Assembly (NCBI GenBank): GCA_905205085.1
Contig: CAJLCG010000076.1
Location: 1-11,635 of the forward strand
Length of the DNA stretch: 11,635 nt
Reading direction: 5' to 3'
Source of the DNA: an uncultured Oscillospiraceae bacterium
Lineage (GTDB): Bacteria; Bacillota; Clostridia; Oscillospirales; Oscillospiraceae
A model generated the notes under the pieces. That model was given only the letters and a program-made list of their open reading frames with translations, was not told the origin of the DNA and ran no database searches. Position numbers and translations under genes: made by a program. Shown piece by piece: positions 21-11,493 of this stretch. The number at the start of each line of letters is the position of its first letter. Positions within the stretch are counted from its first letter, which is position 1.

Positions 21-602
21 TTATTCTTGTGTTCCCGGTTCCACATAGGTCTGCAGTTCTTCCCAGGTGGGGGCTTTTTCGGCAATATCCACCCAGGTGG
101 GCAGGTTGCGCTCCAACTGCTCCCAGGTGATAAACCAGAAGCGGTATCGGATGAGCAGGTGGGCTGGGATGATGTCGGAGATAATCTTGTCGATCTCCTC
201 AAAGGCGGGGGGGATGCCGGGAATATCGGGGAAGTAGACCTCCACCGTGCCCGGCTCCTTGGTCTCCTCCACCCGGGCAATCACGCCGCAGCCTGCAATG
301 GTGTCGTTGATGGCCTCCAAGGTAAAGCTGTCTCCGCTGATGCGCAGCAGGGCGGCCAGCGCCTCCCGCATGGCCTTGGTGGTGGCAGCGGGGGGACGGC
401 GGCGCAGCAGACTGGCGATGCGCTCCAGGCCCCAGTCCTGGGCGGTGGCCAGATTGGCCTCCCGCTGGAGCTCGTCCAGTACGCTCTCTACCCCGTCCAG
501 GGCGAGACCTTCGGACTCCAGCTCGCCGCCCAGATAGCGGCTTTCCACATCGTAGACCCCCAGGGGGCGCAGCAGCTGCCGGAGATACTGGGCGTAACTC
601 AT
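21..602 (-). CDS. xkdU: Baseplate wedge protein, XkdU/YmfQ family (DUF2313)
   Basis: A 193-aa protein of the YmfQ/XkdU (DUF2313) family, which works with baseplate J at the outer baseplate of PBSX- and Mu-type contractile tails. It opens with SYAQYLRQLLRPLGVYD, typical of the family, followed by a helical stretch to about residue 70. A central part contains LLRISGDSFTLEAINDTI, and the C-terminal half contains VEVYFPD and an IIPAHLLIRY segment, also seen in relatives. The ATG overlaps the stop of the baseplate J gene as ATGA, so translation is coupled. The length is normal for the family. The last residues (WEELQTYVEPG) may be a variable attachment for the fibre gene expected just beyond the window's left edge. 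Family assignment comes from residue patterns and gene order. No enzymatic role is expected. Confidence 0.88.
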   Translation of the reverse strand: MSYAQYLRQLLRPLGVYDVESRYLGGELESEGLALDGVESVLDELQREANLATAQDWGLERIASLLRRRPPAATTKAMREALAALLRISGDSFTLEAINDTIAGCGVIARVEETKEPGTVEVYFPDIPGIPPAFEEIDKIISDIIPAHLLIRYRFWFITWEQLERNLPTWVDIAEKAPTWEELQTYVEPGTQE

Positions 603-1651
603 GGCATCGCCTCCACCGTCAGGGTGCCCAGGGTGGGCAGCTGATCCAGCTCCACCTCCTGGTCTGCGGCAGGGGAGAGAATCACATAGTTCTCTACATT
701 TTCACACCCGTAGATCACGCTGCCCAGCTGGGCCCGCAGCACGTCGTTGCCCAGCCGCTCTCCGGAGAACCACCGGCGCACCGCCTCTTCCACCGCCTGC
801 TGCACCGCCCGCTGATCGGTGCCCTCTCTGGCTCGTACCTGGATGGAGACGTTGATGGTGAGGGCCTTGGGGGAGAGCACCTGTACGTCTACGGCAATTT
901 CACGCCGGGACTGGAAGTACTCCTGAAGCTGTGCCAGCAGCTCCTCGTCAGGCTGGCCGCTGAGGGTGGCTACGACAATGTCTACCGTGCCAATGCCCCG
1001 GTTGCGGGGCAGAACGGATACTGCCGTTACCTCGTCAAAGGACAGGGCGCCCTGCTCATAAAAGGCGATGTTGGCGCCGTTGGGCAGACGCCAGTAGGTG
1101 TCCAGGACCCGGGCTCGCAGATCTTCATCCTCCTCGGGGTCGCTGCCGCCGGTAAAGGGCAGAGGGTTGGTGCAGGAGGACACCCCCACCGGGGCCACCG
1201 CCATGGCGGTGATGGCCCGGGCGGACACGTTACCTGCGGCTCCGGACAGCAGGGCCAGGGCGGGGATGTCCACCGTGGTTTCACCGGGGGCAATTACCCC
1301 GTCGGCCGTGGTCTCAAAGCGGATCATATCTGCCGTCAGACACACTGTGCCCTGGGGGATGGTGCGGGGAATATCAGAGCTCTGGGCAGTAAAGCGGATC
1401 ACGCCCTGGGCGGGTGTGGCCTGCTTGCGGGTGAGCCCCCGCAGCTGGGCGTGGAGATCCAGATAGTCGCTCTCCGCGGTCTGGGGAAAGGCCTGGCGGG
1501 TGACCCACTGGGCCTGAATATATAGGGCGTAGACCTGGGCGGCTACGGCGTACATCCGCACGGCCAGGTCGCACCCGGGCTCGGGAGCCAGACCGGTCTG
1601 TTCCTCCAGACAGGTCAGCATCTCCCCAAAAATTTCGTCAATCGTCTTGAT
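599..1651 (-). CDS. xkdT: Baseplate J-like protein (XkdT/gpJ family)
   Basis: Baseplate wedge protein of the gpJ/Mu gp47/XkdT family, which links the central hub to the wedges and triggers sheath contraction. The N-terminal region has the family pattern of a GCDLAVRMYAVAAQVYALY helix, then AFPQTAESDYLDLHAQLRGLTRKQAT, and a beta-rich middle (FETTADGVIAPGETTVDIPA, GAAGNVSA, FTGGSDPEEDEDLRAR). The first ATG is at 1621 and would give 340 aa. However, ten more in-frame codons (KTIDEIFGE) match the usual family N-terminus, and the only good Shine-Dalgarno sequence (1658-1665) lies 7 bases before an ATC codon at 1651. I therefore start it there (350 aa). The in-frame stop at 1664-1666, which is also the stop of xkdS, limits any further extension. 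The 3' end overlaps xkdU as ATGA. Product identity is firm. The start is the open point. Confidence 0.9.
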   Translation of the reverse strand: MKTIDEIFGEMLTCLEEQTGLAPEPGCDLAVRMYAVAAQVYALYIQAQWVTRQAFPQTAESDYLDLHAQLRGLTRKQATPAQGVIRFTAQSSDIPRTIPQGTVCLTADMIRFETTADGVIAPGETTVDIPALALLSGAAGNVSARAITAMAVAPVGVSSCTNPLPFTGGSDPEEDEDLRARVLDTYWRLPNGANIAFYEQGALSFDEVTAVSVLPRNRGIGTVDIVVATLSGQPDEELLAQLQEYFQSRREIAVDVQVLSPKALTINVSIQVRAREGTDQRAVQQAVEEAVRRWFSGERLGNDVLRAQLGSVIYGCENVENYVILSPAADQEVELDQLPTLGTLTVEAMP

Positions 1652-1657
1652 AACAAT

Positions 1658-1665
1658 CCCTCCTT
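1658..1665 (-). promoter_or_regulatory. Ribosome-binding site that sets the baseplate J start
   Basis: The minus strand reads AAGGAGGG here, overlapping the TAA stop of the XkdS-like gene. From the GGAGG core, seven bases lead to an in-frame ATC at 1649-1651. The tail-tube gene has the same arrangement (GGAGG, seven bases, TTG). The ATG at 1621 is about 37 bases away and has only GGGGAG touching it directly, too close to act as a ribosome-binding site. Confidence 0.7.
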
Positions 1666-2020
1666 ACCCGGTGATGTCCAGGGAGAGCGACAGGGGTTCT
1701 CCCTGCCACTCCAAATAGACCTGCAAATGGGCCCGGTTTCCGTCCAGCGGGGTCCACTGGACATCGGTGACCGCCAGCCCCTCCTCCGCCTCCAGGGCTT
1801 GAACCGCATACTGCCGGGCCAGAGCGGCGCGGGCGGAGGGCTTTCCCTCCCGGCACAGCTGGTAAAGGCGGCTGCCCATCTCGGGCAGGAAGGGGAACTG
1901 GCCCCGCCGGGCGGTGAGGCGGAACAAAACCCGCTGCAGCAGCGCCTGGGCCCCGTCCAGCAGCTGAAAATCACCCTGGGCTCCGGGGAGGTAATCTCCC
2001 TGACTGAGTTTTCGCTCCAA
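1664..2020 (-). CDS. xkdS: Baseplate protein, XkdS/gp25-like (DUF2634)
   Basis: A 118-aa protein at the xkdS position between the spike and baseplate J. The family (DUF2634, related in role to T4 gp25 and P2 gpW) contributes to the baseplate wedge and the start of the sheath. The N-terminus (KLSQGDYLPG...GDFQLLDG) and the central RLTARRGQFPFLPEMGSRLYQL, where a short loop precedes a strand ending near Gly-Ser, fit this fold. The C-terminal half reads VTDVQWTPLDGNRAHLQVYLEW, like the closing beta strands. The start is a TTG at 2020, three bases beyond the previous stop. A purine-rich GGGAGGGGGG lies upstream at a slightly long spacing, and no ATG is available. The gene is followed closely by baseplate J, whose ribosome-binding site overlaps its TAA. 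Confidence 0.82.
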   Translation of the reverse strand: MERKLSQGDYLPGAQGDFQLLDGAQALLQRVLFRLTARRGQFPFLPEMGSRLYQLCREGKPSARAALARQYAVQALEAEEGLAVTDVQWTPLDGNRAHLQVYLEWQGEPLSLSLDITG

Positions 2021-2021
2021 G

Positions 2022-2432
2022 TTACAGCCCCCCTCCCATCAGTGACGATACAATCTCCCAGACAATGTCGGCAATGAAATCCTCCAGGGTCTGTTCTCCG
2101 ATCCAGACCTGGCCATTGAGTCGGATCCCGTCCTCACACAGGTCGATCTGCCCGGTCCCGCCGCTCAAGCGTACCGAGCCCGGCTCCAGTTCCTCTTCCG
2201 GCTGCCGCACACCCACCAGGCAGGGGGACTCCTGATGGTCTCCCGCCTTGAGCACCAGCACTTTTTCGCCCACTGCGGGGCGCCAGCGGTAGCCGCCGGG
2301 GGCGTAGATCGCCACCCAGCGCCGCTCTCCGCTCAGGTATACTCCGGCGGGGTCGCCCCCCAGGGTGACCACGCCCACGTCGCCGGGCGCTTCCGCGTTT
2401 CGGCTGTCCAGTTTTCGATTGGATGTCCACAT
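2022..2432 (-). CDS. Small baseplate spike/hub protein with OB-like fold (gpV-like)
   Basis: A 136-aa protein in the slot where PBSX has xkdR. The sequence suggests a tail-spike or gpV/gp45-like protein. Residues around 15-80 read GDVGVVTLGGDPAGVY, then WVAIYAPGGYRWRPAVGEKVLVL and SPCLVGV, the pattern of an OB domain in phage baseplate assembly protein V. A short beta stretch follows (GSVRLSGGTGQIDLCEDGIRLNG), like the first rungs of a spike helix, then a C-terminal helix ending in SSLMGGGL. I see no HxH iron-binding apex motif and no lysozyme or amidase domain, so the piercing tip may be simple or supplied by another gene. An in-frame GTG lies at 2441, but ATG at 2432 has GAGG at better spacing. 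Function is inferred from the OB pattern and position. Confidence 0.65.
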   Translation of the reverse strand: MWTSNRKLDSRNAEAPGDVGVVTLGGDPAGVYLSGERRWVAIYAPGGYRWRPAVGEKVLVLKAGDHQESPCLVGVRQPEEELEPGSVRLSGGTGQIDLCEDGIRLNGQVWIGEQTLEDFIADIVWEIVSSLMGGGL

Positions 2433-2442
2433 ATCCTTCACC

Positions 2443-3393
2443 TCACACCAACACGTCCGGAGGCACCAGCTCCAGCCGGGTCCAGCCTCCGCTCTCGTCC
2501 ACGCCCACCTGGGCCTGTTCCACCCGGTACAGTCCGCTCCGACCCCAGTCAGAGCGGCTCAGCTGCACCAGGTCCCCCGGCTTTCCATAGAACAAAATGG
2601 GGATGGTCACCTCCAGAACCAGCTGCTGGACAGCAGACTGGTCCAGCTGGAACTGGCCGGAGTAGCGCATGGCCTGGTACTGGCTTTTGCCTGGCATGGT
2701 GAGTACCTGCCGGCGGCTGCCGCCCATGGCCTGAAAATCTTCGTTGTTCACCGTCTGGGTCAGCTGCTGATACCGGTCCCGCACCACCACTTGGGACAGC
2801 ACGCCGTAGCGCCTGTCCCGGCGCACCAGCTGTTTGACCGGGGTGGCGTCGTCCAGCCGCAGGGTGGTATTGTCCTCCCACGGGGTGAGCACCAGCCGTC
2901 CCTCCCGGTCGAAGCGGGGGGGACGGCTGTGGTAATAGCGGACAAAGTCGTAGAGGACCGACCACTCGCTGCTGCCCACAGCCACGGAAAATTGGGAGAC
3001 CGGGGCCATATCGGCCCGCTGGGCTACCGTAATGCCATAGGGGGCCACATGGTCCCGGAGAATATCATCCAGGGTAGCCACCTGGTAGTCCTGTCCCAGG
3101 GCCTCATTGTCCAGCAGCCGGGCCGCCATTCCCCGTCCGGACACATCAATCCAAGCCCCCTGGGAGGTGAGGGCGGTCTCGCACTCGTCGATCACGCCGG
3201 TAAAGACCACCTGGTCTTCCTCCATGGCCCGGAAGGTACACCACTGCTGGGGGTCCACCGTGTTGGTTCCCTCCCAGAGACAGCGGATCTGAAAGCTGTC
3301 ACAGGGGACCCCGGAGGTATATTGAAACACCCAGGACAGGGGAGCGGGCAGTACGGTGGTCTCCCCCTGGGCAGAAATCACATATCCGGTCAC
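2443..3393 (-). CDS. xkdQ: Baseplate hub protein, XkdQ family (P2 gpD-like)
   Basis: A 316-aa protein matching XkdQ in length and position. The family forms the trimeric baseplate hub ring under the tail tube, equivalent to T4 gp27 and P2 gpD. Visible features are an N-terminal beta region (WVFQYTSGVPCDSFQIRCLW, with VFTGVIDECE), then SGRGMAARLLDNEA, a hallmark stretch of the XkdQ/gpD group. Next come DILRDHVAPYGI, the central SEWSVLYDFVRYYHSRPPRFDREGRLVL, and a C-terminal beta domain containing TIPILFYGKPGDLVQL and GLYRVEQAQVG. The gene starts with GTG, which overlaps the LysM gene's stop as GTGA with GAGG just upstream. It is followed nine bases later by the spike gene's start region. The name 'hydrolase' sometimes given to this family is unlikely, because no catalytic motif is visible. 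Confidence 0.88.
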   Translation of the reverse strand: MTGYVISAQGETTVLPAPLSWVFQYTSGVPCDSFQIRCLWEGTNTVDPQQWCTFRAMEEDQVVFTGVIDECETALTSQGAWIDVSGRGMAARLLDNEALGQDYQVATLDDILRDHVAPYGITVAQRADMAPVSQFSVAVGSSEWSVLYDFVRYYHSRPPRFDREGRLVLTPWEDNTTLRLDDATPVKQLVRRDRRYGVLSQVVVRDRYQQLTQTVNNEDFQAMGGSRRQVLTMPGKSQYQAMRYSGQFQLDQSAVQQLVLEVTIPILFYGKPGDLVQLSRSDWGRSGLYRVEQAQVGVDESGGWTRLELVPPDVLV

Positions 3394-3974
3394 GACACCC
3401 TCACCTCATCTCCGATGTGAATGAGATTGGGGTTTTTGATCTGGGGATTCAAGGCGATAAGATCACTCAGCGCCATGCCATAGCGGGAAGCAATGGCCCA
3501 GAGGGTGTCGCCCTTTACCACCTGGTAGTAGACGGGAATGGTCTGGGTGGCTTGGGTGGTCTGGGCAGTGCCGGAGCTTTGGGCGCTCTGAGAGGACCAG
3601 GTGCGCACCTCGCCGCTGTAATAGTTGGCCTCCTCCCAGAACTCAAAGGAGTAGCGCACATAGTCCCGCAGGGGCTCCTGCTCCAGCCGCAGGGAGACGA
3701 AGTAGGCGTTGGCCGCCTGCCACAGGGGATGAATGAGCTGCCCCGGCCCGCCGGAGTAGAACACATTGGCCAGCTGGCCAAACTGGGAATAGGCGTCCTC
3801 GCCGATAAATTCCCCCTCTCCCTTCATGACCCGCCGGGTCCGTCCCAGATCCTGCAGGTAATAAAGGCCGAAGGGGATCTTGTTGATGGCCATGATCCGT
3901 TCATAGTCGATGGAATACACTCTGGGGTTGTGGGGCCAGACGTACTCCTTATAGCGCATGGGGGTTAAAAGCAA
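3390..3974 (-). CDS. xkdP: LysM-containing baseplate/tail protein (XkdP family)
   Basis: A 194-aa XkdP-like protein, T4 gp53-like in role, joining the tube end to the hub. Residues 1-120 form the conserved N-terminal part, rich in Tyr, Trp and Phe (RVYSIDYERIMAINKIPFGL, LGRTRRVMKGEGEFIGEDAY, SFEFWEEANYYSGE). Residues 125-147 are a Ser/Thr/Gln/Ala linker. Residues 149-193 are a complete LysM domain (VVKGDTLWAIASRYGM ... LNPQIKNPNLIHIGDEV), which binds glycan chains of peptidoglycan in other proteins and in contractile baseplates often acts structurally. The start is TTG at 3974 with GGAGG nine bases away. The internal ATG at 3959 is too far from that site. It follows the tape-measure-position gene by 18 bases and overlaps xkdQ as GTGA. 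Confidence 0.87.
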   Translation of the reverse strand: MLLTPMRYKEYVWPHNPRVYSIDYERIMAINKIPFGLYYLQDLGRTRRVMKGEGEFIGEDAYSQFGQLANVFYSGGPGQLIHPLWQAANAYFVSLRLEQEPLRDYVRYSFEFWEEANYYSGEVRTWSSQSAQSSGTAQTTQATQTIPVYYQVVKGDTLWAIASRYGMALSDLIALNPQIKNPNLIHIGDEVRVS

Positions 3975-3992: not shown

Positions 3993-4703
3993 TCAGTACA
4001 GGGAAAAGCCCCGGTCATACCGGCGGCTGTCCCGTTGAAAGGCCCGGTCCACCGCCCGGGCCTGATCCTCCTCCCGCGCGGCGGCCGCGGCGGCGGCCAG
4101 GGGGGAATCTCCCAGAGAGGCGGGGTCGTACTGGGTCCCTGTATCCGGCAGCCTTCCGGAGGTGCGGGCAGCCAGACTGCCGCCTCCCTGGCTGCGGCTG
4201 AGGGCATCCAGGGAGGCCTGGGTGCGGTCAAACTGCCGCAGCTGTTCCAGGAGAGCCGGTTCATCCTGCCGGGCCTGGGCGGTTTCCTCTCCCGCCCAGA
4301 GGGAACCCTGGGCGAGCCGGGCCCGGTCCGGGCTCTGGGTCTGTGCCGTCCCGGTCTGTCCGCCCTGGACGAGCTGGGAGCGGGCCCAGCGCTGTCTCTG
4401 CTGCACATCGCTTAAGCCCTGCCCGGCAGAGAATTGGTCCAGGAGCTGCTCCAAGTGGTTATCCTCATGGCGCTGTCCGGCCTGGAGCTGGTCTAAAAGC
4501 TCCTGGTTTAGCTGCTGCTGAAGGGCGTCCTGCCCGCTGGTGTGCTGTGCGGTGCGGATGGCGTCCTCACTGGCCTGGCCCGCAGACTGGACCGGGGGAG
4601 AGGGCAGGATCAGATCGGTAAGATCTGGCTGCCACAGCTGCTCCTCCCCGTCCTCCAGGGCATCCTCCACCTGTTCCAGCAGATGGTCTAAATCATTGGT
4701 CAT
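3993..4703 (-). CDS. Gln-rich helical protein in the tape-measure position
   Basis: Not recognised by family. It is 236 aa, hydrophilic, with about one residue in eight glutamine and no hydrophobic membrane segment. The N-terminus is acidic (HLLEQVEDALEDGEEQLW). Residues 55-110 look like a long helix or coiled coil and hold an imperfect repeat 18 residues apart (QELLDQLQAGQ at 67-77, EQLLDQFSAGQ at 85-95). Residues 120-200 are low complexity. Then come a run of seven alanines (203-209) and a conserved-looking basic/aromatic end, RRYDRGFSLY. It sits between the frameshifted chaperone and the LysM gene, exactly where the tape measure lies in PBSX-type tails, and its ATG overlaps the chaperone extension's stop as ATGA. 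It could be a very short tape measure or a different scaffold for tail assembly. Tape-measure identity rests on position and composition only. Confidence 0.5.
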   Translation of the reverse strand: MTNDLDHLLEQVEDALEDGEEQLWQPDLTDLILPSPPVQSAGQASEDAIRTAQHTSGQDALQQQLNQELLDQLQAGQRHEDNHLEQLLDQFSAGQGLSDVQQRQRWARSQLVQGGQTGTAQTQSPDRARLAQGSLWAGEETAQARQDEPALLEQLRQFDRTQASLDALSRSQGGGSLAARTSGRLPDTGTQYDPASLGDSPLAAAAAAAREEDQARAVDRAFQRDSRRYDRGFSLY

Positions 4704-4993
4704 GTTGCCTCCCCCTTTCCAAGGGCCGCAAAGCGGGCGGGGTCAAAGTTGGGGTTGATTGCCCCCTCTACTGACTCCACTGGCCGGCCGCAGCCGGGAC
4801 ACAGGCCCTGCTGGGCCTGTATCCGGCAGCTGGGGCACAGCCGTTCCAGTTCTTCCTCCCGGTCCAGCACCATGTGGGTCAGACACCACAGGTAGTCCCG
4901 GTCCCGCATCTGTCGGGCCCGCGCCTCGGTGGGTAGAGCCCCAAAGGCCCGCAGCACCCGCCAGCGCAGCCGGTCCGCGCCGTCGGCGGCTAC
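4700..4993 (-). CDS. -1 frameshift extension of the tail assembly chaperone, with zinc ribbon
   Basis: This is the -1 frame continuation of the chaperone gene, open from the slippery run at 4993 to a TGA at 4700-4702. It would add 97 residues to the 113-aa product, giving about 210 aa, as gpG/gpGT do in many long-tailed phages. Residues 118-165 of the fusion are helical and basic (DGADRLRWRVLRAFG, MRDRDYLWCLTHMVLDREEE). Residues 166-181 hold C-x2-C-x8-C-x2-C (CPSC ... CPGC), a zinc-ribbon pattern, and the end is INPNFDPARFAALGKGEAT. A GTG at 4957 could start a separate 85-aa protein, but no ribosome-binding site precedes it. The end overlaps the next gene as ATGA, which shows that ribosomes are expected to travel in this frame. 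The frameshift itself is inferred from sequence and family precedent. Confidence 0.75.
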   Translation of the reverse strand, partial: VAADGADRLRWRVLRAFGALPTEARARQMRDRDYLWCLTHMVLDREEELERLCPSCRIQAQQGLCPGCGRPVESVEGAINPNFDPARFAALGKGEAT

Positions 4994-5331
4994 TTTTTTT
5001 TTACCTCATCTGCCTGCTCCTGGTTGAGGGTCAGGGGCGGGTTCTCCTCCCGGTTAAACCGGCTCCAGGTTCGGGCCAGGTTGGAGATCTCCTCCACCCG
5101 AAGCCCGGAGAGCACGGCCTCCCCGCTGGAGAATACGCGTTCCCCCTCCTGGGTCTCCAAAGCCCGGGCCAGCAGGCAGGCGTTGGCGCACAGCGCCCGC
5201 TCCCACTCCTCCTGGCAAAGCTTGTCGGCCTCCCGCCGGGCTTGGAGAATCTCCAGGGCGGACAGCAGCCGCAGGCGCATGCCGTTGTCCAGCTCCATAT
5301 AGTCCCGGCCGGCCAAAATGGAAGGACTCAT
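4990..5331 (-). CDS. xkdN: Tail assembly chaperone, short form (XkdN-like)
   Basis: A 113-aa protein in the slot between tail tube and tape measure, where PBSX has xkdN. Such proteins coat the tape measure while the tube polymerises and are not part of the finished particle. It is mostly helical: residues 1-30 (ILAGRDYMELDNGMRLRLL), a charged helix (ILQARREADKLCQEEWERAL), a middle helix rich in Ala and Leu, and GLRVEEISNLARTWSRFN near the end. The frame closes with three lysines and TAG directly after an A9 run, so some ribosomes should slip and make the longer form. ATG at 5331 is chosen because GGAGG lies six bases upstream. The in-frame extension upstream of it covers that site and overlaps the tube gene. 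One base separates it from the tube's stop. Confidence 0.82.
   Translation of the reverse strand: MSPSILAGRDYMELDNGMRLRLLSALEILQARREADKLCQEEWERALCANACLLARALETQEGERVFSSGEAVLSGLRVEEISNLARTWSRFNREENPPLTLNQEQADEVKKK
4993..5002 (-). promoter_or_regulatory. Probable programmed -1 frameshift site (A9-G)
   Basis: The minus strand reads GTA AAA AAA AAG TAG in the chaperone frame, a run of nine A followed by G. Both A-AAA-AAA and A-AAA-AAG fit the bacterial -1 slippery heptamer, and the zero-frame stop follows at once. Downstream, GC-rich sequence at 4990-4958 can fold: CCGCC (4989-4985) with GGCGG (4962-4958), enclosing GCGC (4980-4977) with GCGC (4967-4964). This could stimulate slippage, though it starts only a few bases from the run and I cannot compute its stability. 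Confidence 0.72.
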
Positions 5332-5332
5332 C

Positions 5333-5722
5333 TCACGCCTCCATTTCCAGGCGCTTGGAGGCCACAATGGTCACCTTCTCCAGCACCATGTCGCCCAGGG
5401 TGCCGTTCTCCTGAATGGAGGACCAGTGGCAGCCGGAGTAGACGATCTTCCGGTCGGGCTTGCAGATGACCAGGGAGAAGTCGGCCAGAGAGTAAAAGTC
5501 GATGCCGTCCTGCACCGCCTCATCGGTGGCGTACAGACGGCTGAGCTCCAGTACATGGGTGGTCTGGCCGGGGATGGTAGCCACGGGCTCCTCCTCGCCA
5601 AAGGCCTCCACCGCCCGGCTGGTCTTGTCGGAGCGGGCGGAGTAGCTCTGCACCACCGCCACCTTGACACCGTCTACCTCCAGGTAGATGTCGCTGCTGG
5701 TGGGAAATCCTGTGATACTCAA
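5333..5722 (-). CDS. xkdM: Tail tube protein (XkdM family)
   Basis: A 129-aa protein that forms the inner tube of the contractile tail. Family marks are ITGFPTSSDIYLEVDGVKVAV at the start, then SYSARSDKTSRAVEAFGEEEP, a middle segment HVLELSRLYATDEA, FYSLADFSLVICKPDRKIVYSGCHWSS, and a final strand MVLEKVTIVASKRLE. These match XkdM-type tubes, which are slightly longer in PBSX. The gene directly follows the sheath, as is usual. It starts with TTG, there being no nearby in-frame ATG, seven bases after GGAGG, and that ribosome-binding site overlaps the sheath gene's TAA. It should be among the most expressed proteins in the cassette together with capsid and sheath. Confidence 0.92.
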   Translation of the reverse strand: MSITGFPTSSDIYLEVDGVKVAVVQSYSARSDKTSRAVEAFGEEEPVATIPGQTTHVLELSRLYATDEAVQDGIDFYSLADFSLVICKPDRKIVYSGCHWSSIQENGTLGDMVLEKVTIVASKRLEMEA

Positions 5723-5728
5723 TGTAAT

Positions 5729-5736
5729 CCCTCCTT
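5729..5736 (-). promoter_or_regulatory. Strong ribosome-binding site setting the TTG start of the tail tube
   Basis: AAGGAGGG on the minus strand, overlapping the sheath stop codon, places a GGAGG core seven bases before TTG at 5720-5722. The spacing equals that of the portal (TTG), decoration (ATG) and tail-completion (ATG) genes. Confidence 0.75.
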
Positions 5737-6796
5737 AAATCACGATGTGGGCGGTCAGCCAGATCTGGTTGAGGCCGTGGGCCACCGTAAAGGTAAACTC
5801 CACCACGCACACGGTGGGGTCCTCGGAGTGGGCGGAGACGGTGACCTGATCATAGCCGGTGATGATCTCCCGGCTCATCTTGTTCTCCAGCTCCAGCACC
5901 ACCTGGGTGCGGATGGCGCCCCGGCTCTGGGCGGTGTTCTTGGCCCGGCGGAACTTGCTGCGCAGGCTGTCCCGCAGGGTGGGGATCACGTCATCCACAA
6001 TAAGGATGGTGGACAGCTCCCGCCAGGTGGTGTCCTCCACCTCACCGCTGGAGGTGCGGGTGGTGATGCCCCGCACCACGCTTACCTGTCCGTTGACGCT
6101 CTCCACAGGGGTGACGCCGCCCCGCACCAGCAGGTCGATGTCGTTGTCGCTGTACTGCTGGCTCAGGCCCTTCAGACCCAGCAGCTCCGCACCGCCCAAA
6201 GGGATGGCGGGGTCAGACTGGGAGGCGATAGCGCCGGCCACAGCGGCCGCGGTGCTCAGACCGTCCACCGCGGCGTCCTCGCCGTCTACGGAGCTGGGGG
6301 CCACCAGCACCACGCGCTCACAGTTAAGGCCCTTGGCCCGCTCCACCAGGGCGCTCACCTCCTCGCCGGCGGCGCCGCCCACCACGGCAATGCGCTCCCG
6401 GCGGGCGGCGCTGGCGGACAGTACCCTGTCCCGCAGGGCCTGCTGTACCGCCAGCTGGGTGCTGTCGCACAGCATGACCCGGATATTCTCCACGCTGCCC
6501 AGGGTCTCAAAGGCGGTCTCATAGCCCTCCTCGTTGGCCACAGGGACGGCTACCACGGCGGCCGCGCCGTTGAGCAGGGCCACGCGGATGAGCTCCGCCA
6601 TGTCCTGCTTGCCCTCCTGACTGCCGAAGGCGGACACGGCCGCCTCATAGCTGGTCACCGTGATGGGTACCCCGGCGGCAGCCACCGAGTTGATGGCCGC
6701 CAGGCCTACGATCTGATGTCCTCCGCTGCCCCGTACCAGGGTGGAGGCGTCGTAGGAGGAGTAGACGCCGGGGCGCTCGTGAGTGGTCAAATTCAT
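5735..6796 (-). CDS. xkdK: Contractile tail sheath protein (XkdK family)
   Basis: A 353-aa sheath protein that polymerises around the tail tube and contracts on infection. The N-terminus (ERPGVYSSYDA) is the classic start of the family. Residues 25-160 hold a Rossmann-like region with VGLAAINSVAAAGVPITVTS, AALLNGAAAVVAVPV-like strands and RIAVVGGAAGEEVSALVERA. A middle domain contains ERVVLVAPSS and DIDLLVRGGVTPVESVNGQV. The conserved C-terminal domain (about 240-353) has TWRELSTILIVDDVIPTLRDS, FRRAKNTAQSRGAIRTQV and a final strand region VVEFTFTVAHGLNQIWLTAHIVI that donates a strand to neighbouring subunits. PBSX XkdK is over 100 residues longer, so this is a compact sheath, apparently without extra surface domains. 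The ATG overlaps the tail-completion stop as ATGA. Confidence 0.93.
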   Translation of the reverse strand: MNLTTHERPGVYSSYDASTLVRGSGGHQIVGLAAINSVAAAGVPITVTSYEAAVSAFGSQEGKQDMAELIRVALLNGAAAVVAVPVANEEGYETAFETLGSVENIRVMLCDSTQLAVQQALRDRVLSASAARRERIAVVGGAAGEEVSALVERAKGLNCERVVLVAPSSVDGEDAAVDGLSTAAAVAGAIASQSDPAIPLGGAELLGLKGLSQQYSDNDIDLLVRGGVTPVESVNGQVSVVRGITTRTSSGEVEDTTWRELSTILIVDDVIPTLRDSLRSKFRRAKNTAQSRGAIRTQVVLELENKMSREIITGYDQVTVSAHSEDPTVCVVEFTFTVAHGLNQIWLTAHIVI

Positions 6797-7299
6797 AAGG
6801 TTCTCTCCCCTCTGATTTCAAAGTCCAGGAATTCGCCCTGCTCCTGGGTGCTGCTGAACACCAGCAGGGCGGTGCACACCAGCTGGGCCGGGCGCTTGAG
6901 CAGCCTGGCCTGCTGGTCATAGTCGGTCTCTCCGCAGGAAAAGGCACCCGGCGCCAGCCCCTTGGGGCCGGGGGGAAGACAGGCCTGAGCCAGGGCGGCC
7001 CAGGTCTGCTCCAGCGCGGTGGGATCAGTGCCGGGGGCGGCATACAGGTCCAAACCAAAGGTCAGGGTGACCGCCTTGCCGTACCGCTCCTCCCACTGCT
7101 GGGTGTCTGGGTTGAGCCGCTGCCCCAGATAGCTGGAAAAGCCCGCCGGAGAGCTTTCACACCCCCGCAGGGAGACAGAGATCACCGGAGTTTCCACCTG
7201 GGGCCGGTCTCCGGCGGGCCAGGCGGTGCGGGCGGGCAGCCCCTGCTCCTGGAGGTACTGACACAGTACCTCTACCGCCTGCTCCATGTGGGTGCTCAT
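6793..7299 (-). CDS. Tail completion/terminator-like neck protein
   Basis: A 168-aa protein placed directly before the sheath, where tail-completion or terminator proteins lie (the XkdJ/YqbJ region in PBSX-type operons). It opens with HMEQAVEVLCQYLQEQGLPA, then VETPVISVSLRGCESSPAGFSSYLGQ, a segment VTLTFGLDLYAAPGTDPTALEQTWAALAQ with alternating hydrophobic residues, and closes with RLLKRPAQLVCTALLVFSSTQEQGEFLDFEIRGE. The strand-helix-strand order suits the small fold of tail terminator proteins, which cap the tube and sheath and join to the head. ATG at 7299 is chosen because GGAGG lies seven bases upstream, and it overlaps the previous gene's stop as ATGA. It overlaps the sheath start in the same way. 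The exact role among neck proteins is inferred. Confidence 0.68.
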   Translation of the reverse strand: MSTHMEQAVEVLCQYLQEQGLPARTAWPAGDRPQVETPVISVSLRGCESSPAGFSSYLGQRLNPDTQQWEERYGKAVTLTFGLDLYAAPGTDPTALEQTWAALAQACLPPGPKGLAPGAFSCGETDYDQQARLLKRPAQLVCTALLVFSSTQEQGEFLDFEIRGERTL

Positions 7300-7634
7300 A
7301 CTCCCGCCTCCTCTCCCTTGTCTCTGGGCCGCAGTACCGCCCAAATGTGAGATACACTGCTTCCTACGTACACTGGGTGGGCGGAGGTGACGGTGTAACC
7401 CTCCCCCTCAAACTCCACCCAGTCGCAATTGGCTGTTAAGGGGCGGTTGGGGTCGCCCAGGTATAAAAACCGGTCCTCCCGCTGCCAGCCCAGGGGGGAG
7501 GGCAGGCTCTGGGCCTGACCCTTTTCCCGGATAGGCTGGAGGAAGGCCCGGGCGTCCACTTCCGTGTCCCCCTGGTGGAGGACCACCCGCTGGCCGTACT
7601 TGGCCAGCAGGGCGGCCCAGGCCGTGTCCATCAT
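7296..7634 (-). CDS. Head-tail connector/head-closure protein
   Basis: A 112-aa protein second in the run of three small genes between capsid and sheath. It has MDTAWAALLAKYGQRVVLH, then QPIREKGQAQSLPSPLGWQREDRFLYLGDP, and ends in CDWVEFEGEGYTVTSAHPVYVGS and HIWAVLRPRD. The short beta-barrel pattern, with a WV..EG..Y.V motif, resembles head-closure or minor structural proteins of YqbH/XkdH type, which seal the portal channel after packaging. The start is ATG at 7634, overlapping the previous stop in ATGATGG, with GGGGGTGA upstream. The second ATG at 7631 is equally possible and changes one residue. The 3' end overlaps the next gene as ATGA. Function is assigned by position and fold pattern only. 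Confidence 0.68.
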   Translation of the reverse strand: MMDTAWAALLAKYGQRVVLHQGDTEVDARAFLQPIREKGQAQSLPSPLGWQREDRFLYLGDPNRPLTANCDWVEFEGEGYTVTSAHPVYVGSSVSHIWAVLRPRDKGEEAGV

Positions 7635-7981
7635 CCCGTCACCCCCTGAAAATAAAAGCCTCCGTCGATGAGATAGGGGGCCATCAGCCGCTGAATCTGC
7701 TCGGTGAGCCCGCCGGTGTCCCCACTGTTCTCCGTCTGGATGGATACATCCCCGGCGGTGAAGGAGGTCACGCCGCTGCCGCCGCCGGCAGCATGCAGCC
7801 CGTCCAGTGCCATCCAGGCCGCGCACACCACAAAGGCGTCGGTACAGTCCTGGGGGGTGAGACCGGGGCGCAGCTGGGCGGCCAGAGTCCGCTCCGCTGC
7901 GGCGCACAGGGGCTCCAGAATTGCCCGCTGTTCTTCCGAGGCGCCCATGGCGATGGCTAAGGCAATGATCTGCTCGGTCAT
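7631..7981 (-). CDS. Head-tail adaptor protein (gp6/YqbG-like)
   Basis: A 116-aa, mainly helical protein directly after the major capsid protein, the usual place of the adaptor that binds the portal ring. The N-terminal half consists of helices (QIIALAIAMGASEEQRAILEP, then CAAAERTLAAQLRPGLTPQDCTDAFVVCAAWMALDGL). After a Gly-rich turn, the segment VTSFTAGDVSIQTENSG is a hallmark of this adaptor group, in which a gene-wide 'sft.GDvsi' stretch precedes the last helix LTEQIQRLMAPYLIDGGFYF. ATG overlaps the capsid stop as ATGA, and its own TGA overlaps the next ATG. The family is recognised by pattern rather than by search. Confidence 0.75.
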   Translation of the reverse strand: MTEQIIALAIAMGASEEQRAILEPLCAAAERTLAAQLRPGLTPQDCTDAFVVCAAWMALDGLHAAGGGSGVTSFTAGDVSIQTENSGDTGGLTEQIQRLMAPYLIDGGFYFQGVTG

Positions 7982-8997
7982 GCCTGCACCTTCAGCACGT
8001 GGGAGGCCTCCTGGAAGATCTTCGCAAAGCCGCTGATGGTGGTGATGGCCGCCCGCTCCAGCTGGCGGTCAATGAGCTTGTCGTACTCCACCATCACGTC
8101 GCTGCCCTGAATGAGCTCCAGAGCGTAGCGCTTGTCCAGGCCCACGGCTGTCTTCTCAGGCAGCACGCTGGTGCGCAGCAGGTTGGCGCCCAGGGGGGTG
8201 GACAGCTTGCCGGTGCCCTGGAAGTTGAGGCCGGTGAGGGGGTTCTGGAACTCGGGGAGTTTCAGCAGCTTGACCATCACGTCGGGGCTCACCAGAAGGG
8301 TGTTCATCTCGTAGGGCTCAAACTTGGCCCAGAAGTCCACCAGGTCGTCGTAGGTCAGGGTGTCGGAGGCGGCGGTGGTGAACACATCGGCGGCGTTGTC
8401 GTTGCCGTCGCCGTTGATGAGCACGTCTACGCCGTCAGCCAGCAGCATCTGGGCAATGTGGGCGCCGATCTGGCGCAGGGTGACGGAGAACAGATCCAGC
8501 TTGCGGTAGCGCACTGACTCGTAGGAGGCCACCAGCATGCGGCCCCGCTTGTGCAGCTTAATGAGGTTGGTCTGCACCTTGATGGTGGTGCTGGGGATGG
8601 CGGCGCCCTCGTCTACCGCACGCAGTTCCTTCTCCTCGCCGCCGGCCTGGGCGGCGATGGAGCGGTAGTCCATGCCGTCAAAATTGGTGGTGGCGGCGGT
8701 GATGGAGGGGATGAGGTTGCTCTCGTCCATGCCCTGGCGGACCGAGCGGGCGATGTACTCGGGGAAGAGGACAGCGGCATCGGCGGTGCGGAAGAACTTC
8801 TCCACCGCGTCGCAGCCTGCGCCCTTTACCTTGATATCAAAGCGCTTGAGCTGGCGCTGAAAGGCGTCCAGACCCTCCAGGCTGGTACCCTTGTACTGCT
8901 CGGAGGGGTCCAGGCGCTCCAGCACCTGGGTAAAGGTGCTGCCCGCCTCCTGATACATGCCCTTCTCCAGCTTCAAAGTGTCATAACGATTGGCCAT
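7978..8997 (-). CDS. Major capsid protein (HK97-type fold)
   Basis: A 339-aa protein of the PBSX XkdG-type capsid group, forming the icosahedral shell. The N-terminal part is helical and charged (YDTLKLEKGMYQEAGSTFTQ). The middle has FPEYIARSVRQGM, which precedes the spine of the shell fold, then KELRAVDEGAAIPSTTIKVQTNLIKL, the E-loop-like region, RGRMLVASYESVRYRKLDLFSVTLRQIG and ADGVDVLINGDGNDN. The end holds DLVDFWAKFEPYEMNTLLVSPDV, TSVLPEKTAVGLDKRYALELIQGSDVMVEYD and a closing strand region. A GTG at 9018 in frame is ruled out as the start because it would contain the GGAG ribosome-binding site itself. The ATG at 8997 lies 11 bases from that site. The gene overlaps the adaptor gene as ATGA and follows the decoration gene by 24 bases. 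Confidence 0.92.
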   Translation of the reverse strand: MANRYDTLKLEKGMYQEAGSTFTQVLERLDPSEQYKGTSLEGLDAFQRQLKRFDIKVKGAGCDAVEKFFRTADAAVLFPEYIARSVRQGMDESNLIPSITAATTNFDGMDYRSIAAQAGGEEKELRAVDEGAAIPSTTIKVQTNLIKLHKRGRMLVASYESVRYRKLDLFSVTLRQIGAHIAQMLLADGVDVLINGDGNDNAADVFTTAASDTLTYDDLVDFWAKFEPYEMNTLLVSPDVMVKLLKLPEFQNPLTGLNFQGTGKLSTPLGANLLRTSVLPEKTAVGLDKRYALELIQGSDVMVEYDKLIDRQLERAAITTISGFAKIFQEASHVLKVQA

Positions 8998-9021
8998 ATT
9001 CGTCCACGCTCCTTTCACAAA

Positions 9022-9363
9022 TTACAGGCACACCACAGCGGTGTGGGCGGCGTCATCCACCGAGGCCACCAGGGCGGTCACGCCGGTGGAGGCGGCCTTT
9101 ACCTTGCCGGTGCCGTCAGCGGCCAGAATGACCTGGCCCAGGCTCACCGAGCCGGAGATGGGCAGAGTCATGAAGCCCTTTACCTGGACTCCGGCAAAGC
9201 CCTTACGGTTGGACAGGGCCAGACCACAGAATGCGTCGTTGTCGCTGCACGCGCCCACCTGGCCGTCGTCGGTGATCTTCACCACCTGGCCGGGGACCAC
9301 GTCCTCCTTGGCCAGAAAAGTGGCGGTCACGGCGCCGATCTCTTCAAACGAAACCTGATTCAT
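9022..9363 (-). CDS. Small capsid decoration-type protein (DUF2190-like)
   Basis: A 113-aa, mostly beta-strand protein between protease and capsid. It resembles DUF2190-type head cement: VTATFLAKEDVVPGQVVKITD, CGLALSNRKGFAGVQVKGFMTLPIS, SLGQVILAADGTGKVKAAS, and TALVASVDDAAHTAVV. Such proteins bind the outside of the expanded shell and stabilise it. Here the gene precedes the capsid gene, as in other prophages with protease-decoration-capsid order. ATG at 9363 has GGAGG seven bases upstream. It is the first gene after the 58-base, AT-richer gap that separates it from the protease, the longest gap in the cassette. I see no convincing promoter or terminator in that gap. The family match is by pattern. 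Confidence 0.68.
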   Translation of the reverse strand: MNQVSFEEIGAVTATFLAKEDVVPGQVVKITDDGQVGACSDNDAFCGLALSNRKGFAGVQVKGFMTLPISGSVSLGQVILAADGTGKVKAASTGVTALVASVDDAAHTAVVCL

Positions 9364-9421: not shown

Positions 9422-10354
9422 CTAAATAAGAAAAGCTCCGTCCTCCTGGGACAGAGACTGGGACTTCTGTGCGTAGGGCAGCTGCAGAGGGTAGTTCTTG
9501 GCCGCCTTCTGGCCGTAGAGCCGCTGGAGCTGGCGTAACTCGGGCTCCTCCAGGTGCTGGGCCATGCGCTGCAAGACCTTCATGTCGGCCTGGGGGTCGG
9601 CCAGGGCGGCCAGCCGCACCACATCCTCCCGCAGCTCCTTGAGAGCACGCACGCCCAGTTCGGCCTGGGCTTTCAGCGTTTCAATCTCGCCAGCAAAGCG
9701 GGGGTAGTCGGCCAGCAGCTCCTTGAGGGTCTCATAGTGCTTGCCGCCCATGGCCTTTACCACGCCCGCCTGGGGCTGGGCGGGGACGGCTACAAAGGAG
9801 AACTCATAGGCGTCGGCGGGCTCCTCCAGGCTGAGATAGCACAGCTTTCCGTCATAGACCTGGCCGGGCTGATGGCCGCAGCCAGCCCCGGCCTCCTCTC
9901 CGCAGATGGAGCACACACGGCGCTTCACCGCGCAGCCCACGCTCACTTCCTTTTTGATGCCGCCGTCAATTTCGGCGATGAGTCCCCGGTTGTCGTCGGT
10001 GCGCACCATATAGGCCCGGGCCTTCAGCCAGCAGTAGGGGTCCCCCGCCTGGGTGACCCGCTCCGGCTCAGAGATGACCTGGGTGGAAAAGATTCGTGCG
10101 GATTGATTGCGGGCCGACCAGTTGTGGTCAAAGATGCCGCTCTTGCCCAAAAACAGGGGGGCCAGAGCCTCCAGTGTATGGGCGGGGAACCGCTCAAAAT
10201 CCCGGTCCACCTCGTTGTCGCACAGCCGCACGGAGAAGACGTATACCTCCTGGGCGGTGAGGGGCTTTTTGCTCCAGGTGTTGATGAGCTCCAGCTCCTC
10301 GGGGCTCACCCCCTCGGCCTGCTGCAAGGCCAGGGCGGTTTTGGTAATGTTCAA
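9422..10354 (-). CDS. xkdF: Prohead protease with C-terminal scaffold-like region (XkdF-like)
   Basis: A 310-aa protein that should cleave scaffold and capsid N-termini before the shell matures. Residues 35-60 read EVYVFSVRLCDNEVDRDFERFP, typical of the XkdF-type serine protease group. His77 lies in GIFDHNWS and Ser138 in KKEVSVGC, the likely catalytic pair. Residues 148-172 form a cysteine/histidine cluster (Cys148, Cys151, Cys159, His161, Cys172) within ICGEEAGAGCGHQPGQVYDG, probably a zinc site. EPADAYEFSFVAVPAQ (178-193) ends the protease domain. Residues 205-285 are a charged helix or coiled coil that can serve as internal scaffold, as no separate scaffold gene is present. The start is TTG at 10354, overlapping the portal stop as TTGA, with GGGAGG eight bases upstream. 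The longer in-frame ORF to 10444 only reads through portal sequence. Confidence 0.85.
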   Translation of the reverse strand: MNITKTALALQQAEGVSPEELELINTWSKKPLTAQEVYVFSVRLCDNEVDRDFERFPAHTLEALAPLFLGKSGIFDHNWSARNQSARIFSTQVISEPERVTQAGDPYCWLKARAYMVRTDDNRGLIAEIDGGIKKEVSVGCAVKRRVCSICGEEAGAGCGHQPGQVYDGKLCYLSLEEPADAYEFSFVAVPAQPQAGVVKAMGGKHYETLKELLADYPRFAGEIETLKAQAELGVRALKELREDVVRLAALADPQADMKVLQRMAQHLEEPELRQLQRLYGQKAAKNYPLQLPYAQKSQSLSQEDGAFLI

Positions 10355-11493
10355 CTTGCTTCCCTCCCAATCTCTTCTGCCTGGGCGTGGAGCAGCTGGG
10401 CCCGGGCCTCTTCCACGATGTCCTGGAGGTTGATATCCTCCCACTCAATGCTCACCTGGTCGTCATAGCCGCCCAGGCGCAGCCACAGCCGGCAGATGCG
10501 CCGGAGCATGGGCTCCAGACTGCGGCGGATGGCGGTAATTTCACTGGTGAGCAGGTCGGCCTGCTGGGCGCTCATGCGCTCGGTGGACGACCAGGACAGC
10601 CCCAGCAGGAAGGGGGGAATGCCCGTCTTGGCCACCAGCTGCTCCAGAATCTGGCGTACCGGCACCTCGCTGTCCAAAATCTGGTTGTCTGCGCCAATGA
10701 CCTTGATGTCTACATCCCCCACCGCCACAAAGTCCCGCACCGCCCCCTGGCGGGAGGACTGCATGGCCTGGGACCACTGGCTGGCTACCTGTTCGCCCCG
10801 CTCCTGGGCGGAGAGAGGGCTGTTCTCGTCGGGCTTACACACCACAGCAAAGCGCAGGTTGCCTACCCGCTCCCAGTTCTGCCCCAGAGCCTGGTAGATT
10901 TTCAGCAGGATTCCGGTGAGAAACGGCATGGAGCGCAGCATGGATACCCCGTAGGGGTGCTCCGCCTCAGGCTGGAAGGGGGTGAAGAGCAGCAGCTGCT
11001 GCCAGGGCAGCTCTTTGGGCTGGCCCCCGTCCTCCCGCACACACAGGCGGAAGTCCAGGGGGGAGTCCCCCTCCCGAATCTCCACCAGGGCGGGGTCCGC
11101 GCACAGCAGGGCGGCAATGGTCTTGCCCTGGGGGTCCAGCACCATCTCGCCCACGCCCTGGCCGCAGGTGAGCATACAGTCCAGATACTGGTCTAAAAAG
11201 GACTGGATGCCCTGCTGTCCCCGGCCGGTGTCCACCGTAGCCAGAAAGCGGTTTAGACCCTGCTGGGCCCGGGTGTCGCCGCAGCGCACCTGTACCCCGC
11301 CGCACAGCCGCACCATTTTCCAGATGGCGGCGTCAATAATAGGCACTGCCTCCCGGATAGAACGGTAGAGGGTAATCTCCCCGCTACGCAAAGGCACATA
11401 CTGGTCCAGTACCCCGAAGGGGTGGCGCTCCCAGTCCCTCAGCTGGACCTGAGGGGGTTTCCCCGCTGGTTTTTTCTTCTCAAACCATTTCAA
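10351..11493 (-). CDS. Phage portal protein
   Basis: A 380-aa portal protein (XkdE-like position), the dodecameric ring through which DNA enters and leaves the head. It has VPLRSGEITLYRSIREAVPIIDA, then LDQYLDCMLTCGQGVGEMVL, ADPALVEIREGD and FRLCVREDG, LLFTPFQPEAEHPYGVSML, and MPFLTGILLKIYQALGQNWERVG, the typical alternation of stem and wing segments. Next comes VIGADNQILDSEVPVRQILEQL followed by TGIPPFLLGLSWSSTERMSAQQ, a strong portal hallmark before the crown helices. The last helix has EEARAQLLHAQAEEIGREAS. The start is TTG at 11493 with GGAGG seven bases upstream, and its first bases overlap the stop of the preceding frame as TTGA. No in-frame ATG is nearby. It overlaps the protease gene by four bases. 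Confidence 0.92.
   Translation of the reverse strand: MKWFEKKKPAGKPPQVQLRDWERHPFGVLDQYVPLRSGEITLYRSIREAVPIIDAAIWKMVRLCGGVQVRCGDTRAQQGLNRFLATVDTGRGQQGIQSFLDQYLDCMLTCGQGVGEMVLDPQGKTIAALLCADPALVEIREGDSPLDFRLCVREDGGQPKELPWQQLLLFTPFQPEAEHPYGVSMLRSMPFLTGILLKIYQALGQNWERVGNLRFAVVCKPDENSPLSAQERGEQVASQWSQAMQSSRQGAVRDFVAVGDVDIKVIGADNQILDSEVPVRQILEQLVAKTGIPPFLLGLSWSSTERMSAQQADLLTSEITAIRRSLEPMLRRICRLWLRLGGYDDQVSIEWEDINLQDIVEEARAQLLHAQAEEIGREAS

What the first reader, a model, noticed from the sequence alone, without database searches (positions are those of the whole stretch)
3993..4703. Only a 236-aa protein where a tape measure should be
In PBSX-type tails the gene between the chaperone and the LysM/XkdP gene is the tape measure, usually several hundred to over a thousand residues. 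Here the slot holds one Gln-rich, mostly helical protein of 236 aa without a membrane segment, and both flanking genes are intact, so a simple deletion is not evident. At about 1.5 angstrom per helical residue this would set a tail of only about 35 nm. Either the particle has an exceptionally short contractile tail, or length control is done differently.
Basis: partly seen in the sequence, partly recalled or inferred. Interest (0 to 1): 0.72.

Follow-up and report, generated by a model that had tools for sequence, protein, structure and literature searches.

The report
Short-tailed, host-inherited gene-transfer-like particle cluster
The very short tail-length gene is real and is shared by many gut bacteria that appear to have kept a phage-derived, DNA-packaging particle as part of their own chromosomes, which makes it a candidate for a new variant of gene transfer agent with an unusually short contractile tail.

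Summary
In detail: window 3993-4703(-) is an intact 236-aa gene in the tape-measure slot between a frameshifted tail chaperone and the LysM/gpU-like gene. It is not a deletion. In 92 relatives measured, the slot protein never exceeds 289 aa: 104-268 aa in 36 loci with a sheath, 25-71 aa in 14 without, 73-289 aa in 42 further contigs. Mainly the two ends are conserved. The nearest whole genome found, a 2.9-Mb contig, has no TP901-type tape measure anywhere.

The larger finding is what carries it. Relatives hold a 12.5-kb unit, TerS-TerL-portal-capsid-sheath-tube-baseplate; its capsid gene occurs once per genome (114 of 114 positive genomes of 300). In the window's clade it lies between glgB/dacD-like genes and, mostly, recG. 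Its tree shares 24 of 34 splits with host rpoB, with no strong conflict, over 37 genomes. The 17 genes tested are under purifying selection. TerS lacks the front of its family profile. Best reading: a vertically inherited, gene-transfer-agent-like particle with a minimal tape measure and a short contractile tail. GTA-like packaging is published for Oscillospiraceae without a gene cluster; this is a candidate. Packaging and transfer are inferred, not shown.

The parts
3993..4703 (-). slot protein, 236 aa: proposed minimal tape measure; conserved N-terminus (MTNDLDHLLEQ) and C-terminus (RDSRRYDRGFSLY), variable middle
4700..4957 (-). second half of tail chaperone (C4 zinc-ribbon-like, Pfam matches all below cut-off), in another frame
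   Evidence: role by position
4990..5367 (-). first half of tail chaperone, ends just after a poly-A run
   Evidence: role by position, no family match
4994..5002 (-). run of nine A, probable frameshift site joining the two chaperone halves; runs of 7-9 A in nine of twelve relatives printed
3390..3974 (-). gpU/XkdP-like tail protein with LysM domain
2443..3393 (-). baseplate hub (XkdQ-like)
2022..2441 (-). putative spike/gpV-like protein (phrog_25991, function unknown)
   Evidence: role by position
1664..2020 (-). baseplate wedge (gpW/gp25-like)
599..1621 (-). baseplate J-like wedge subunit
21..602 (-). baseplate gpI/Gp48-like (Pfam match below cut-off), last gene of the unit
5333..5722 (-). 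tail tube protein (phrog_27038, function unknown)
   Evidence: role by position
5735..6796 (-). tail sheath, 353 aa
6793..7344 (-). tail terminator-like protein (phrog_25177, function unknown)
   Evidence: role by position
7296..7634 (-). head-tail connector 2 (ORF starting MMDTAW; frame read)
   Evidence: role by position
7631..7981 (-). head-tail adaptor
7978..9018 (-). major capsid protein (PF25209)
9022..9363 (-). small virion structural (decoration-like) protein
9422..10444 (-). protein in the XkdF/protease-scaffold position (phrog_16951, function unknown)
   Evidence: role by position
10351..11493 (-). portal protein
11561..11635 (-). 3' end of the large terminase gene (YFAATIAAGSSGGFFAGSVERTGF*), cut by the window edge

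Best explanation
The window is most of a host-owned particle cluster of Oscillospiraceae: small and large terminase (outside the window but for the last codons), portal, capsid, connectors, sheath, tube, chaperone, slot protein and baseplate, in one 12.5-kb unit that has passed vertically with the chromosome. The 236-aa protein is its tape measure reduced to the minimum: the conserved C-terminus anchors at the baseplate hub/gpU end, the conserved N-terminus marks the other end, and the variable linker between them sets how many tube and sheath rings are laid down, giving a contractile tail of roughly 30-50 nm. The frameshifted chaperone upstream loads it. The particle would package host DNA without sequence choice, because TerS has lost its front, DNA-binding part, and either deliver it to kin cells (gene transfer agent) or, less likely, kill them as PBSX does. 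Shown by computation: gene, position, conservation, size series, flanks of relatives, vertical inheritance, purifying selection, TerS truncation. Inferred: tape-measure role, tail length, packaging, delivery.
For: Slot lengths by tail type do not overlap: 36 loci with sheath 104-268 aa (median 193), 14 without 25-71 aa (median 49), Mann-Whitney p=5e-8, not corrected for relatedness. One capsid match per genome in 114 of 114 matching genomes out of 300 of the family. TerL+portal+MCP tree against rpoB tree over 37 genomes: Mantel r=0.856 (0 of 9999 permutations as high), 24 of 34 splits shared (mean 0.24 when labels are shuffled), 19 of 24 strong splits shared, 0 strong conflicts. Flanks in the window's clade: glgB 6 of 6 loci, dacD-like 5 of 6, recG 4 of 6 (by clustering; named from L083). 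dN/dS 0.04-0.27 for 16 genes, 0.41-0.51 for the slot. TerS of L083 aligns only to positions 57-128 of PF03592 (20.8 bits, below the cut-off of 26.1), whereas L101, L107, L112 and L121 align from positions 2-6. RcGTA precedent: 49-nm tail, tape measure of about 216 residues. GTA-like packaging is reported in Onthomonas (Oscillospiraceae) and Ruminococcus callidus without an assigned cluster.
Against: No particle, packaged DNA or transfer has been seen for this cluster. 186 of 300 family genomes and 321 of 394 order genomes gave no capsid match, so it is far from universal. No tail fibre or lysis gene lies in the window clade's unit; no LexA-like box was found upstream of TerS in 44 loci. Four of 10 genomes carry a TP901-type tape measure elsewhere. 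Three sheath-less loci with tube and LysM-type genes (L112, L113, L120) show no slot protein. Five of 35 order loci show no terL at this threshold, among them L213, L216 and L217, where no terminase lies before the portal gene. The structure model is too poor to test the role.
Confidence: 0.67

Rival explanations
1. PBSX-like killer: the vertically kept particle packages host DNA but does not deliver it; it kills competitors by contraction, and the slot protein is still a short tape measure.
For: Terminase is of the PBSX family (TIGR01547); the 2026 paper raises the same doubt for FpGTA. Retained contractile sheath in 39 of 44 family loci.
Against: Of 35 loci with no sheath match, 34 keep the portal, 35 the capsid (by selection) and 30 the large terminase next to it, so the head seems to be what is kept; a contraction killer should keep the sheath. 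PBSX has a long tape measure (recalled).
Confidence: 0.2
2. Ordinary defective prophage: a remnant of a temperate phage in which the tape measure happened to shrink.
For: The structural genes are phage-derived; the virus collection IMG/VR holds at least 46 loci of this cluster.
Against: Purifying selection on 17 genes tested, one copy per genome and host-congruent trees, host genes at both ends in relatives, no integrase among the 25 most frequent Pfam families of 132 flank proteins (130 rarer families and 49 rarer PHROGs were not shown).
Confidence: 0.06
3. The slot protein is not a tape measure but an anchor, plug or assembly factor for the hub; tail length is set by something else, and the long linker in sheathed members serves the sheath or chaperone.
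For: The C-terminal RD-RRY-like motif survives in 25-71 aa proteins of sheath-less relatives, some with the tube apparently fused to the terminator; the linker is poorly conserved and partly disordered.
Against: Position, conserved ends with a length-variable middle, and the association of length with the sheath fit a measure.
Confidence: 0.25

Closest known systems
RcGTA of Rhodobacter capsulatus (Bardy et al. 2020, PMC7296036, passages seen)
   Same: GTA with a short tape measure (113 + 83 + 20 residues) and a 49-nm tail.
   Different: RcGTA has a non-contractile tail (recalled); this cluster encodes a sheath and a PBSX/Mu-type baseplate. No sequence relation was tested.
FpGTA of Faecalibacterium (Borodovich et al. 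2026, PMC12946183; abstract, sections 9, 10 and 26 read)
   Same: Same gut lineage of hosts; TerS without an obvious DNA-binding domain, TerL, portal, scaffold and capsid genes; no replication genes.
   Different: FpGTA is described as podovirus-like, 10.5 kb plus a second operon. Homology to this cluster was not tested: no named Faecalibacterium sequence was reachable. Two compact relatives read ORF by ORF (L206, L212) have a similar layout.
PBSX of Bacillus subtilis
   Same: PBSX-family large terminase; the same order of tail genes (recalled). Named as the first GTA/GTA-like system of Gram-positive bacteria in PMC12946183.
   Different: PBSX is a larger element with lysis genes and a long XkdO tape measure (recalled). 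Here the slot is 236 aa and no lysis gene adjoins in the window clade.
Mu-like contractile phages SuMu and vB_MhM_3927AP2
   Same: Same slot order: sheath, tube, chaperone, tape measure, then hub and baseplate genes.
   Different: Their annotated tape measures are 787 and 759 aa (from coordinates), three times longer.

Membership tests
Gene transfer agent (features from abstract and passages of Kogay et al. 2022) | transmitted vertically as part of the cellular genome | tested here: met
   37-genome tree comparison, 0 strong conflicts; shared flanks within clades
Gene transfer agent (features from abstract and passages of Kogay et al. 2022) | caudoviricete-derived head and tail genes in a chromosomal cluster | tested here: met
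Gene transfer agent (features from abstract and passages of Kogay et al. 2022) | packages at best part of its own genome; particles carry random host DNA | not testable with these tools
   needs particles; published packaging in related hosts is not tied to this cluster
Gene transfer agent (features from abstract and passages of Kogay et al. 2022) | made by a small subpopulation and transfers genes | not testable with these tools
   experiment needed
Gene transfer agent (as reported for FpGTA) | small terminase without DNA-binding domain | tested here: met
   L083 TerS aligns only to PF03592 positions 57-128 of 141 (below cut-off); L101, L107, L112, L121 keep the front part; sequences. That the front part binds DNA is recalled
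Tail tape measure protein | encoded between the chaperone and the hub/gpU gene | tested here: met
Tail tape measure protein | conserved ends with length-variable middle | tested here: met
Tail tape measure protein | match to a known tape measure family | tested here: not met
   no Pfam or PHROG match
Tail tape measure protein | length sets tail length | not testable with these tools
   needs electron microscopy
PBSX-type element | PBSX-family large terminase | tested here: met
   TerL of relative L049: TIGR01547, 177.6 bits over cut-off 105.05
PBSX-type element | long XkdO tape measure (recalled) | tested here: not met
   236 aa here; maximum 289 aa in 92 relatives measured
Headless tailocin | no capsid, portal or terminase genes | tested here: not met
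   terL, portal and MCP in 44 of 44 family loci, which were fetched by capsid or sheath matches

The most novel reading that the evidence does not exclude
An ancient gene transfer agent is spread over the gut order Oscillospirales and shows its own dismantling: contractile tails with a 100-290 aa tape measure, then sheath-less tails with a 25-71 aa remnant and a terminator-tube fusion, then near tail-less capsids like those of Ruminococcus and perhaps FpGTA. The window is the contractile stage, and it is the missing gene cluster behind published GTA-like packaging in Oscillospiraceae and Ruminococcus.
Probability: 0.5. Interest if true: 0.92.

Novelty: new variant of a known kind. Interest (0 to 1): 0.82.

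Why it matters
Few gene transfer agents have a known gene cluster. A vertically inherited cluster in gut bacteria gives genes to remove when asking what drives the capsid-borne DNA traffic already measured in faeces. Apart from PBSX, which is called GTA-like and has a contractile tail (recalled), I found no contractile-tailed GTA in the listings; most of the listed papers (for example 51 found and 20 listed) were not opened, and the library is open-access only. The natural series of slot lengths, with and without a sheath, makes the tape-measure rule testable at its lower limit. And a virus collection lists these host loci as viruses, which may distort virome statistics.

Tried and rejected
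Whole-genome search for the window: none held. Direct search for the slot protein in viral contigs found no relative (12 pattern hits, none confirmed); the better conserved tube and sheath worked. The first rpoB tree gave Mantel r=0.08 because about half of the rpoB sequences were antisense ORFs; found by identity check and redone with motif-checked frames. Two dN/dS values (prot vs L083, spike vs L049) were codon-register artefacts and were recomputed (0.060 and 0.245); connector 2 was not tested. LexA-like boxes upstream of TerS: none in 44 loci, 0.56 expected by chance. Solved-structure search for the tube: no match. Naming the compact relatives: the capsid of L212 finds proteins named Ruminococcus; no Faecalibacterium name is among the 120 rows shown of 2511, so homology to FpGTA stays open. 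I considered and rejected deletion, headless tailocin and ordinary cryptic prophage.

Rows dropped: of 79 loci, 18 had no LysM-type gene on the plus strand and were not measured; 11 of the 61 examined had no motif-bearing ORF (6 with sheath, 5 without) and are outside the length test; by the ORF lists I read 90-178 aa proteins in the six with sheath (part's output was cut). Of 51 contigs, 42 gave a slot protein, 2 had a LysM-type gene but no motif, 7 were not measured. Of 44 genomes searched for rpoB 41 matched; I left out three fragmentary ones (G021, G068, G305) and G059 (no marker found), leaving 37. Flank scan: 164 proteins listed, 132 scanned.

Full report
Observation. The minus strand of the window reads portal, a protein in the XkdF position, small virion protein, major capsid protein, three connectors, sheath, tube, chaperone in two frames, slot protein, LysM/gpU-like protein, hub, spike, W, J and I (several roles are by position only, see parts). 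The right edge holds the last codons of a large terminase. The slot ORF 3993-4703(-) encodes 236 aa and overlaps the upstream chaperone half by 4 bases. A run of nine A at 4994-5002 lies just before the stop of the first chaperone half; runs of 7-9 A recur there in nine of the twelve relatives printed, and the other three (L100, L110, L115) have none. So the upstream gene looks like a gpG/gpGT-type chaperone and the next gene sits where a tape measure belongs. In two Mu-like contractile phages whose sheath matches this one, the same slot holds annotated tape measures of 787 and 759 aa.

Is it a deletion? No. The protein family is broad (296 proteins at E<=0.01; one at 92% identity is named Pseudoflavonifractor phocaeensis). 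I looked for the slot in 79 loci from genomes of the family and order (44 and 35) by finding the ORF that ends just before the LysM-type gene and carries the C-terminal motif. Sixty-one had the LysM-type gene and fifty could be measured: 36 with a sheath, 104-268 aa; 14 without, 25-71 aa. A further 42 viral or virome contigs gave 73-289 aa; the one of 73 aa (L220) is again sheath-less. The alignment of 42 homologues shows an invariant C-terminus, a fairly conserved N-terminus and a middle that varies in length and sequence. Against L083 the last 45 residues are 84% identical, the first 36 are 69% and the middle 35%. The relatives with the smallest slot proteins have no sheath match, and in several (L194, L196, L201, L216, L217 and, weakly, L191 and L213) the tube domain lies in the C-terminal half of a 225-272 aa protein whose front part sits in the terminator position; both domains are detected by profile, mostly with weak E-values, in L196, L201 and L217. 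That is what a shrinking tail would look like. Three loci (L112, L113, L120) keep tube and LysM-type genes with no slot protein in sight.

Could a long tape measure be supplied from elsewhere? In G117, one contig of 2.9 Mb whose capsid is 98% identical to the window's, the TP901 tape-measure family has no match. It is absent from 6 of 10 genomes tested and present in 4 of 10, there on other contigs or more than 200 kb from the cluster. Other tape-measure families were not tested.

What carries it? The window itself has no genome on hand, so its surroundings come from relatives. All 44 family loci hold terL, portal and MCP, 39 of 44 hold the sheath, and the terL-to-I span in the 39 that have both ends is 11.4-14.0 kb, median 12.5 kb. 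Portal precedes capsid in all but L052 and L105. A TerS-like ORF lies directly before terL in 44 of 44 loci, about 100 aa in the window's closest relatives, longer elsewhere. In the window's own clade (L049, L050, L083, L084, L085, L086) the unit sits after glgB (6 of 6) and a D-Ala-D-Ala carboxypeptidase-like gene (5 of 6), and before recG (4 of 6). Elsewhere it sits next to other household genes, for example pgi in L111 and typA in L112. Among 132 flank proteins the most frequent Pfam families are host enzymes, histidine kinases, SLH domains and RecG; no integrase is among the 25 families shown, though 130 rarer ones were not shown. Some relatives carry one more gene directly after I: a likely adhesin in L051, L088, L093, L094 and L095 (five flank proteins match CBM 5/12, which I take to be these), or a holin in L096 and, by its place, in G075.

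Vertical inheritance. In 300 genomes drawn evenly from the family, 114 have the capsid gene and each has exactly one match. In 394 of the order 73 match; four have more than one match (G336, G534, G588, G657), of which only G588 has a strong second one. For 37 genomes a tree of TerL, portal and capsid was compared with a tree of rpoB: Mantel r 0.856 against a maximum of 0.339 in 9999 permutations, 24 of 34 splits shared against at most 2 in 500 label shuffles, 19 of 24 strong splits shared and none in conflict. A mobile phage family would not be expected to do this. An earlier run with wrong rpoB frames gave r=0.08 and is discarded for the reason shown. Between the window and two relatives the 17 genes tested are under purifying selection, strong on portal and capsid (0.04-0.07), weakest on the slot protein (0.41-0.51).

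Across the order (35 loci, fetched because their capsid matched) the sheath is found in 5, the tube in 8, LysM-type in 18, terL in 30. Sixteen loci of the 79 show neither sheath, tube nor LysM-type gene. In L213, L216 and L217 no terminase lies before the portal; L214 and L215 look unlike the rest and may be something else. These are results against a simple picture of one intact unit everywhere.

Packaging. The large terminase of L049 is of the PBSX family and the nearest annotated phage terminase is 49.6% identical. The small terminase of L083 has lost the front third of the family profile, the DNA-binding part by recalled knowledge, while some distant relatives keep it. A TerS without an obvious DNA-binding domain was reported for FpGTA. 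This predicts packaging without choice of sequence. A 'Bacteriophage sp.' record from human faecal samples, MT835769, is a piece of chromosome with this cluster beside dihydrofolate reductase, thymidylate synthase and a nucleoside phosphorylase gene. That fits packaged host DNA, or carry-over.

Link to published work. Borodovich et al. 2026 (abstract, sections 9, 10 and 26 read, passages elsewhere) found short, even packaging of host DNA in Ruminococcaceae (including R. callidus), Oscillospiraceae (Onthomonas) and Christensenellaceae, searched several MAGs including Onthomonas, and report a strong cluster candidate in one, of Faecalibacterium, described as podovirus-like. The words contractile, sheath and tape measure do not occur in the held main text. 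The compact relative L212 has capsid homologues named Ruminococcus. So this family is a candidate for the unexplained cases. Homology with FpGTA itself was not testable.

How it would work. By analogy with RcGTA (tape measure of about 216 residues, 49-nm tail) a 236-aa measure with 135 helical residues in a poor model gives a tail of some 30-50 nm with baseplate. The chaperone loads the slot protein; its ends meet hub and terminator; tube and sheath polymerise until the linker is covered; the head is filled with host DNA; cells lyse by a route not encoded here. All of this paragraph is inference.

Verdict. The finding is real and ordinary neither in size nor in setting. It is a new variant of a known kind: a gene-transfer-agent-like element with a contractile tail at the short limit, vertically kept in gut Oscillospirales. 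Confidence in the best explanation was lowered from 0.68 to 0.67 on checking, for the three loci without an adjacent terminase.

Noticed in passing
window 3993-4703: The slot protein contains no lysine and no cysteine in 236 residues.
   Followed up: no
window 4994-5002: Poly-A slip site in the chaperone gene, 7-9 A in nine of twelve relatives printed; L051 has both chaperone halves in one frame.
   Followed up: partly
L001, L002, L218, L220 (GenBank MT835769, MT837832, MT835508, MT835952): Records deposited as 'Bacteriophage sp.' from faecal samples hold parts of this cluster; L001 continues into host household genes.
   Followed up: partly
L003-L048: IMG/VR lists pieces of this host-inherited cluster as viral contigs, so virus collections may be inflated by it.
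   Followed up: partly
L051, L088, L093, L094, L095 directly after gene I: Proteins of 152-158 aa, probably the five flank proteins with a CBM 5/12 match, likely adhesins.
   Followed up: no
L096 (3293-3736) and G075:C1:710438: A toxin-secretion/phage-lysis type holin gene follows the cluster in some relatives; that family has no match in G117.
   Followed up: partly
L052, L105: Capsid gene lies before the portal gene.
   Followed up: no
L191, L194, L196, L201, L213, L216, L217: Terminator and tube appear fused in one protein in sheath-less relatives, suggesting a tube of very few rings.
   Followed up: partly
L213, L216, L217: No large terminase next to the portal gene; it may lie elsewhere in those genomes.
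   Followed up: partly
L219 (MT835552): 33.7-kb faecal contig with a related terminase (55%) but few other shared genes; possibly a true phage relative.
   Followed up: no
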